Positions 36,305-36,345 of a stretch of DNA of 64,000 bases are shown here, piece by piece (positions within the stretch are counted from its first letter, which is position 1; the number at the start of each line of letters is the position of its first letter). The position numbers and the translations under genes are program-made. This DNA comes from Bacteroidota bacterium (GTDB lineage Bacteria > Bacteroidota > Bacteroidia > Bacteroidales > UBA4417). The stretch lies in the NCBI GenBank assembly GCA_013376995.1, contig JACAAZ010000019.1:20115-84114 (forward strand), in the 5' to 3' direction. The notes under the pieces are model-generated. The model did no database searches, was not told the origin of the DNA, and worked only from the letters and a program-made list of their open reading frames with translations.

Positions 36305-36345
36305 TCCATTGTACGGATGTTGCATTGCGACATCCGTACAATGGA
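36305..36345. repeat. Perfect 16-bp hairpin inside the transposase CDS
   Basis: TCCATTGTACGGATGT-tgcattgcg-ACATCCGTACAATGGA. Confidence 0.9.

What the first reader, a model, noticed from the sequence alone, without database searches (positions are those of the whole stretch)
36305..36345. Perfect 16-bp hairpin embedded in frame inside a REP-associated HUH transposase gene
TCCATTGTACGGATGT-tgcattgcg-ACATCCGTACAATGGA lies in the CDS just after the MPNHVH motif and before the candidate Tyr helix, and keeps the frame (SIVRMLHCDIRTME). Y1/REP-associated transposases act on hairpin DNA, so a gene carrying a hairpin at a domain junction could be its own substrate, could autoregulate its mRNA, or could seed REP copies. 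Position and function are inference; the hairpin itself is directly visible.
Basis: partly seen in the sequence, partly recalled or inferred. Interest (0 to 1): 0.8.

Follow-up and report, generated by a model that had tools for sequence, protein, structure and literature searches.

The report
Transposase gene carrying its REP hairpin
A bacterial gene for a REP-associated transposase carries, in frame inside its own coding sequence, a DNA hairpin of the kind such enzymes act on; relatives in many phyla carry matching hairpins in the same loop, which is known for this enzyme group, but this copy is a lone relic in its genome, while a second transposase gene nearby shows the same feature with a repeat that does occur elsewhere in the genome.

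Summary
The hairpin is real: 16-bp perfect arms at 36305-36345, in frame in an intact 277-aa REP-associated tyrosine transposase (best of 300 codon shuffles: 12 bp). It lies in a disordered loop between the HUH strand and helix C. Of 154 distinct homologues, 115 have a perfect hairpin in that loop (codon-shuffled mean 1.6) and almost none in the conserved blocks. Most are 28-29-nt 'double-foot' REP units (GTAG...CTAC); where REPs flank the gene, the loop copy matches them. So this is an in-frame REP in a subclass 2.4 / RAYT group 4 gene, a feature Quentin et al. (2018) already described. The window copy (GTACGGATGT-TGCATTGC-GACATCCGTAC) keeps unit length and loop but has GTAC feet, no flanking REP and no second copy in its genome: an orphan, so active seeding of REPs is unlikely. 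Beyond the finding: a second transposase at 41052-41684, of another clade, has a hairpin in the equivalent loop; its repeat (GGGGTGACT...AGTCACCCC) has seven places in this genome, and 16 of 66 homologues share the feature (null 0.76). Whether such internal hairpins function (autoregulation, source copy) or are tolerated passengers kept palindromic by template switching remains open.

The parts
35942..36775 (+). Gene 1: REP-associated tyrosine transposase (TnpAREP/RAYT, subclass 2.4-like), 277 aa
36173..36190 (+). HUH motif MPNHVH (residues 78-83)
   Evidence: invariant H81 and H83 in alignment A1
36305..36345 (+). The hairpin: 16-bp perfect arms, in frame (codons 122-135)
36311..36339 (+). 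29-nt double-foot-like REP unit GTACGGATGTTGCATTGCGACATCCGTAC (feet GTAC/GTAC)
   Evidence: same length and loop as the 29-nt units of homologues
36305..36310 (+). Outer stem extension, left arm (TCCATT), pairs with 36340-36345 (AATGGA)
36253..36457 (+). Disordered part of the slot between HUH strand and helix C (residues 104-172)
   Evidence: pLDDT below 50; variable in length and content in homologues
36339..36406 (+). 24-nt tandem repeat directly after the hairpin (EEIASGSI / EEIASGSK / KEIASKD)
36728..36730 (+). Catalytic Tyr263 codon in YIRNNP
   Evidence: invariant in A1
41052..41684 (+). Gene 2: second REP-associated transposase of another clade (MPNHFH, YIHNNP)
41261..41295 (+). In-frame hairpin of gene 2, TATTGTCGGAGTGACT-caa-AGTCACCCCGACAATA (one mismatch), 13 codons after HUH
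41658..41705 (+). Palindromic repeat of gene 2's family over its stop codon; core has 7 places in the genome

Best explanation
Gene 1 is a subclass 2.4-like (RAYT group 4) TnpAREP, and the hairpin is a copy, or diverged descendant, of the double-foot REP that this transposase lineage is associated with, sitting in frame in the surface loop between the HUH strand and helix C. Shown here: the identity of the gene, the occupancy of that slot by cognate REPs across the family, and the orphan state in this genome. Inferred: REPs land preferentially at and around their own transposase gene, and only copies in this disordered loop and in an open frame survive. In this genome the REP population is gone or never grew, so the copy is a relic; its arms stay matched either because a cis function needs the hairpin or, as I think slightly more likely, because replication template switching homogenises the arms of existing palindromes.
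For: 115 of 154 homologues have a perfect hairpin in the slot against 1.58 in codon shuffles; density 5.5 per kb in the slot, 0.28 and 0.11 in the blocks. 74 of 75 double-foot units are 28 or 29 nt long; the window unit is 29 nt with the same loop TGCATTGC. Slot units match the REPs flanking the same gene (0.52 versus 3.17 mismatches in 7 positions). Density falls from 3.16 per kb in the slot to 0.53 within 300 nt and 0.012 at 2.5-6 kb. REP presence goes with transposase presence in 299 genomes (Fisher p 1e-17). The slot is disordered in the model. No other copy in the own genome. The same feature was described for subclass 2.4 (PMC6006769).
Against: The window unit lacks the GT[AG]G foot that defines these REPs, has no flanking REP and no sibling copy, so descent from a REP is inferred from length, loop, position and reading frame. 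No tree was built to place gene 1 in subclass 2.4; one motif (WH where WQ is listed) deviates. An old relic should have lost its pairing, yet the stem is perfect.
Confidence: 0.8

Rival explanations
1. The internal hairpin is functional in cis: the transposase binds it, as single-stranded DNA at its own gene or as mRNA, and so limits its own expression, or it is the protected master copy from which REPs spread.
For: Occupancy of one slot in 75% of genes across phyla; codon identity at identical residues 71-83% in the unit against 45-49% in the blocks at 40-60% block identity; stem kept perfect in the window without any REP population; a second clade does the same; the best fold match is a transposase bound to a REP hairpin.
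Against: 39 of 154 homologues have no perfect slot hairpin, very close pairs differ in having one (L163 versus L172, 96% identical in the blocks), and repeated insertion of cognate REPs would give the same conservation. No binding or expression data. The window unit lacks the usual guide tetranucleotide.
Confidence: 0.3
2. The perfect stem is kept up by mutation, not by selection or recent insertion: template switching within a quasi-palindrome copies one arm onto the other and extends the stem into the flanks.
For: Stems run at least 6 bp beyond the foot in 8 of 75 slot units against 0.15% for mismatched flanks, and also in non-slot copies; outer arms of gene 2's repeat differ between genomic copies but match within some of them. 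Template switching is known to create and maintain hairpins (PMC8794818, title and abstract only).
Against: No ancestral reconstruction was done; extended REP subtypes, for example ATT-GTAG...CTAC-AAT in five genes, could be inherited as units. It explains arm matching, not why the slot is occupied. Not exclusive with the main explanation.
Confidence: 0.4
3. The peptide is what is selected; the DNA palindrome is a by-product of a conserved linker sequence.
For: VxTLHCNVxT recurs in many homologues.
Against: The unit is read in two different frames (62 and 13 units), giving unrelated peptides (VETLHATSL, RDVACNVST); the peptide lies in a disordered region; residues coded by opposite arms vary together as the palindrome demands in 11 of 11 cases.
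Confidence: 0.02
4. Chance inverted repeat without any relation to REPs.
For: Only the lack of other copies in the genome.
Against: Shuffles and the homologue comparison.
Confidence: 0.01

Closest known systems
Subclass 2.4 TnpAREP (RAYT group 4) with REP sequences inserted within tnpAREP, Quentin et al. 2018, PMC6006769
   Same: Type of transposase, motifs NHVH and YIxNNP, variable insertion between HuH and Y, in-frame palindromic unit in that insertion
   Different: Window unit has GTAC instead of GT[AG]G feet, no flanking REP, no other copy in the genome, a stem extended by 6 bp, and WH instead of WQ
GTAG REPs and REPtrons, Di Nocera et al. 2013, PMC3733652
   Same: Palindromic units associated with a RAYT gene; units within ORFs are reported there
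   Different: Single orphan unit, no GTAG tag; the host gene is the transposase itself
TIRYT genes with GGGGWSAS repeats (PMC3733652) and subclass 2.6 TnpAREP (PMC6006769), for gene 2
   Same: Repeat core GGGGTGAC fits GGGGWSAS; repeat at the gene end and elsewhere in the genome; YIHNNP motif, SS in the tail, long insertion between helix C and strand 4
   Different: In-frame repeat in the HUH-to-helix-C loop, which the passages read do not report for that subclass
Rickettsia palindromic elements inserted in ORFs (mentioned in PMC3733652)
   Same: In-frame palindromic DNA insertions tolerated inside proteins
   Different: Those lie in unrelated genes; here the host gene is the cognate transposase

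Membership tests
TnpAREP / RAYT (Y1 HUH transposase) | HUH motif plus single catalytic Tyr in the TnpAREP arrangement | tested here: met
   H81, H83, Y263 invariant in A1; NF047646 E 8e-13 but 48.5 bits, below the 80-bit cut-off; fold match 4er8
Subclass 2.4 / RAYT group 4 | Motifs NH[IFV]H, WQ, YIxNNP | tested here: inconclusive
   NHVH and YIRNNP fit; WQ is WH in the window (motif table read)
Subclass 2.4 / RAYT group 4 | Variable insertion between HuH and Y; no C-terminal extension | tested here: met
   slot 126 aa against 11-133 aa in homologues; protein ends 14 residues after Tyr263
Subclass 2.4 / RAYT group 4 | Place in the TnpAY1 tree | not tested
   no tree with reference sequences of the published subclasses was built
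Double-foot REP | Palindromic unit of about 28-29 nt | tested here: met
   29-nt unit at 36311-36339; homologues 28-29 nt
Double-foot REP | GT[AG]G at 5' foot and C[TC]AC at 3' foot | tested here: not met
   feet are GTAC/GTAC
Double-foot REP | Repeated in the genome | tested here: not met
   only copy in 5.05 Mb, 96.7% complete
REPtron | REPs flanking the RAYT gene | tested here: not met
   no unit in the window other than 36311; no other inverted repeat beside the gene
REPtron | Protein binds and cleaves the cognate hairpin | not testable with these tools
   needs biochemistry
Subclass 2.6 / TIRYT (gene 2) | YIH[QN]NP, SS in tail, GGGGWSAS repeats with copies in the genome | tested here: met
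   YIHNNP, HSSF and GGGGTGAC palindrome at 7 places; HUH is NHFH where the paper lists NH[LIV]H; no tree was built

The most novel reading that the evidence does not exclude
Carrying one's own REP in frame in the HUH-to-helix-C loop arose in at least two separate RAYT clades because the hairpin acts in cis, as an operator on gene or mRNA or as a protected master copy; the window gene keeps a working hairpin with a shifted GTAC guide although its REP population is gone.
Probability: 0.2. Interest if true: 0.75.

Novelty: new member of a known kind. Interest (0 to 1): 0.45.

Why it matters
How REPs spread and why bacteria keep RAYT genes is unresolved. A transposase whose own gene contains the cognate hairpin gives a simple handle: recode the hairpin synonymously and ask whether expression, binding or REP mobility change. 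The comparison here shows that cognate REPs are about 250 times denser in this one loop than in DNA 2.5-6 kb away, that each matches its own flanking REPs, and that two clades do the same with unrelated repeat families, side by side in this window.

Tried and rejected
Genome copies of CCATTGTACGGATGT with 2-3 mismatches: 70 hits, but the reversed control gave 67 and 43, so background. Canonical GTAGRGRC...CTAC pattern in the own genome: none. Named-genome scan with P0002: no relatives. Closer relatives across 394 genomes of the order: no near full-length match; P0002 and P0003 are closer but their DNA is in collections not open here. Close pairs as a test for compensatory change: L084/L140 (74% identical) show one paired change outside the foot plus two unpaired ones, so no clear sign of selection. 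Peptide-level selection and chance were rejected.

Full report
OBSERVATION. In 300 codon shuffles of the gene the longest perfect arm was 12 bp; about 0.0003 arms of 16 bp are expected in 64 kb. As RNA or DNA it folds far better than shuffles (z -8.3 and -10.3).

THE GENE. The protein is a Y1 HUH transposase of the REP-associated type: NCBIfam REP_Tyr_transpos E 8e-13, though below that model's cut-off. The family profile's only PDB sequence hit is 4er8, TnpAREP, and the AlphaFold model's best fold match is the same entry, the transposase bound to a REP hairpin. HUH is residues 78-83 and the invariant Tyr is 263. The model is confident for both halves of the core, while residues 104-172, which include the hairpin-coded peptide (122-135), fall below pLDDT 50. 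The genome holds no other match to this protein.

THE SLOT IN HOMOLOGUES. I collected DNA for 154 distinct homologues, mostly Bacteroidota but from many phyla, and split each into N block, slot and C block with HMMs. A perfect hairpin (arm at least 9, loop at most 12) is in the slot of 115; codon shuffles of the same slots give 1.58 on average, 5 at most. Density is 5.5 per kb in the slot, 0.28 and 0.11 in the blocks. 75 units in 73 genes have the double-foot layout, 63 of 28 nt and 11 of 29 nt, 70 with GTAG...CTAC. They are read in two frames (62 and 13); the third is closed by the TAG in the foot. So the conserved thing is DNA, and the peptide follows from it. In the 29-nt frame-0 form (V x T L x C N V y T) the residues x and y, coded by opposite arms, fit the palindrome in all 11 cases (E:S, R:R, G:P, D:S).

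COGNATE REPs. At 77 loci with long flanks, double-foot units fall from 3.16 per kb in the slot to 0.53 within 300 nt, 0.039 at 0.3-1 kb and 0.012 at 2.5-6 kb; none is in the conserved blocks. In 25 loci that have both, slot and flanking units share the stem (0.52 mismatches in 7 positions against 3.17 when loci are shuffled; smallest of 2000 shuffles 2.28). Across 299 genomes of the phylum the canonical pattern is present in 99 of 160 genomes with the transposase and in 20 of 139 without (Fisher p 1e-17; not corrected for relatedness).

THE WINDOW COPY. Inside the 16-bp arms lies a 29-nt unit, GTACGGATGT-TGCATTGC-GACATCCGTAC, which aligns without gaps to GTAGAGACGT-TGCATTGC-AACGTCTCTAC: identical loop, three pairs changed on both sides, one T-A pair changed to T-G. 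It differs from a live REP in three tested ways: GTAC feet, no flanking REP, and no other copy in a 5.05-Mb, 96.7% complete genome. I therefore call it an orphan or relic.

SECOND TRANSPOSASE. ORF 40962-41684 (likely start 41052), 4.3 kb downstream of gene 1, is another REP-associated transposase (MPNHFH, YIHNNP) of a different clade, just before a transcription-repair coupling factor gene. It has an in-frame hairpin at 41261-41295, 13 codons after its HUH motif, and a related palindrome over its stop codon. The core GGGGTGACTATAGTCACCCCG has 7 palindromic places in the genome, one of them this one, and none for the reversed control; the six others are extragenic or at ORF edges. So gene 2 has the genomic repeat family that gene 1 lacks. 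Among 66 distinct homologues 16 have a perfect hairpin within 60 aa after HUH (null 0.76, max 3), typically ..GGGGTGACT-nnn-AGTCACCCC.. or ..GATGACT-nnn-AGTCATC... The repeat fits the GGGGWSAS motif of TIRYT repeats (PMC3733652), and the protein fits subclass 2.6 by Tyr motif, tail and insertion; I built no tree.

WHAT IS KNOWN. Quentin et al. 2018 (PMC6006769) report REPs inserted in frame between HuH and Y in subclass 2.4 and call this unique to that subclass, noting that some 2.8 genes carry one too. Di Nocera et al. 2013 (PMC3733652) describe GTAG REPs, REPs within ORFs and REPtrons. The phenomenon for gene 1 is therefore known, and this is a new, degenerate member. In-gene repeats in the gene 2 clade are not in the passages I read; supplements were not available.

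MECHANISM. Shown: slot occupancy, cognate identity, steep clustering at the gene, disordered loop, orphan state. Inferred: REPs insert preferentially near their own gene, where the protein is made or single-stranded DNA is exposed, and only copies in this loop and an open frame are tolerated. Two processes could keep the stem matched: selection for a cis function, or template switching. For template switching speaks that stems run at least 6 bp beyond the foot in 8 of 75 slot units, against 0.15% for mismatched flanks, that non-slot copies do so too, and that the outer arms differ between copies of gene 2's repeat. For selection speaks the codon conservation (71-83% in the unit against 45-49% in the blocks at 40-60% block identity), although repeated insertion of cognate REPs would give the same.

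CAVEATS. The homologue set was gathered with an alignment that included motif-bearing proteins, though the genome scan itself used only HUH and W motifs. Codon identity was measured on units picked as palindromes; the first and last full codons were left out. Many loci come from metagenome assemblies. Presence lists for one search were copied from the tables.

Noticed in passing
41052-41684 (+): Second REP-associated transposase gene, of another clade, with its own in-frame hairpin (41261-41295) in the equivalent loop; 16 of 66 homologues have one too.
   Followed up: yes
41658-41705: Palindromic repeat over the stop codon of gene 2; its core occurs at 7 places in the genome, a repeat family fitting the GGGGWSAS motif of TIRYT repeats.
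   Followed up: partly
36305-36310 / 36340-36345; L064, L084, L212, L229, L056: Stems extended well beyond the REP foot far more often than chance, in slot and non-slot copies, with outer arms that differ between copies; possibly template switching. Five genes share ATT...AAT directly outside the foot.
   Followed up: partly
36339-36406: 24-nt tandem repeat right after the hairpin; slots of other homologues also carry short tandem repeats, so the loop expands and contracts.
   Followed up: no
L156 (GTACGGGCG...), L204 and L123 (GTAC on one side): A few other homologues have GTAC instead of GTAG feet; in L204 and L123 flanking copies share the change, hinting at lineages with a different guide tetranucleotide.
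   Followed up: no
G000:C16:60412-60777 and G000:C41:174846-175214: Two further distant relatives of gene 2 in the own genome with GNHFH/KNHFH instead of MPNHFH; no slot repeat seen in their protein sequences.
   Followed up: no
33760-34797 and 34827-35816 (+): Two neighbouring ORFs of similar length and similar-looking sequence upstream of gene 1, without a Pfam match.
   Followed up: no
62668-62709: Another strong inverted repeat of the window (20-nt arms, 95% complementary), not examined.
   Followed up: no
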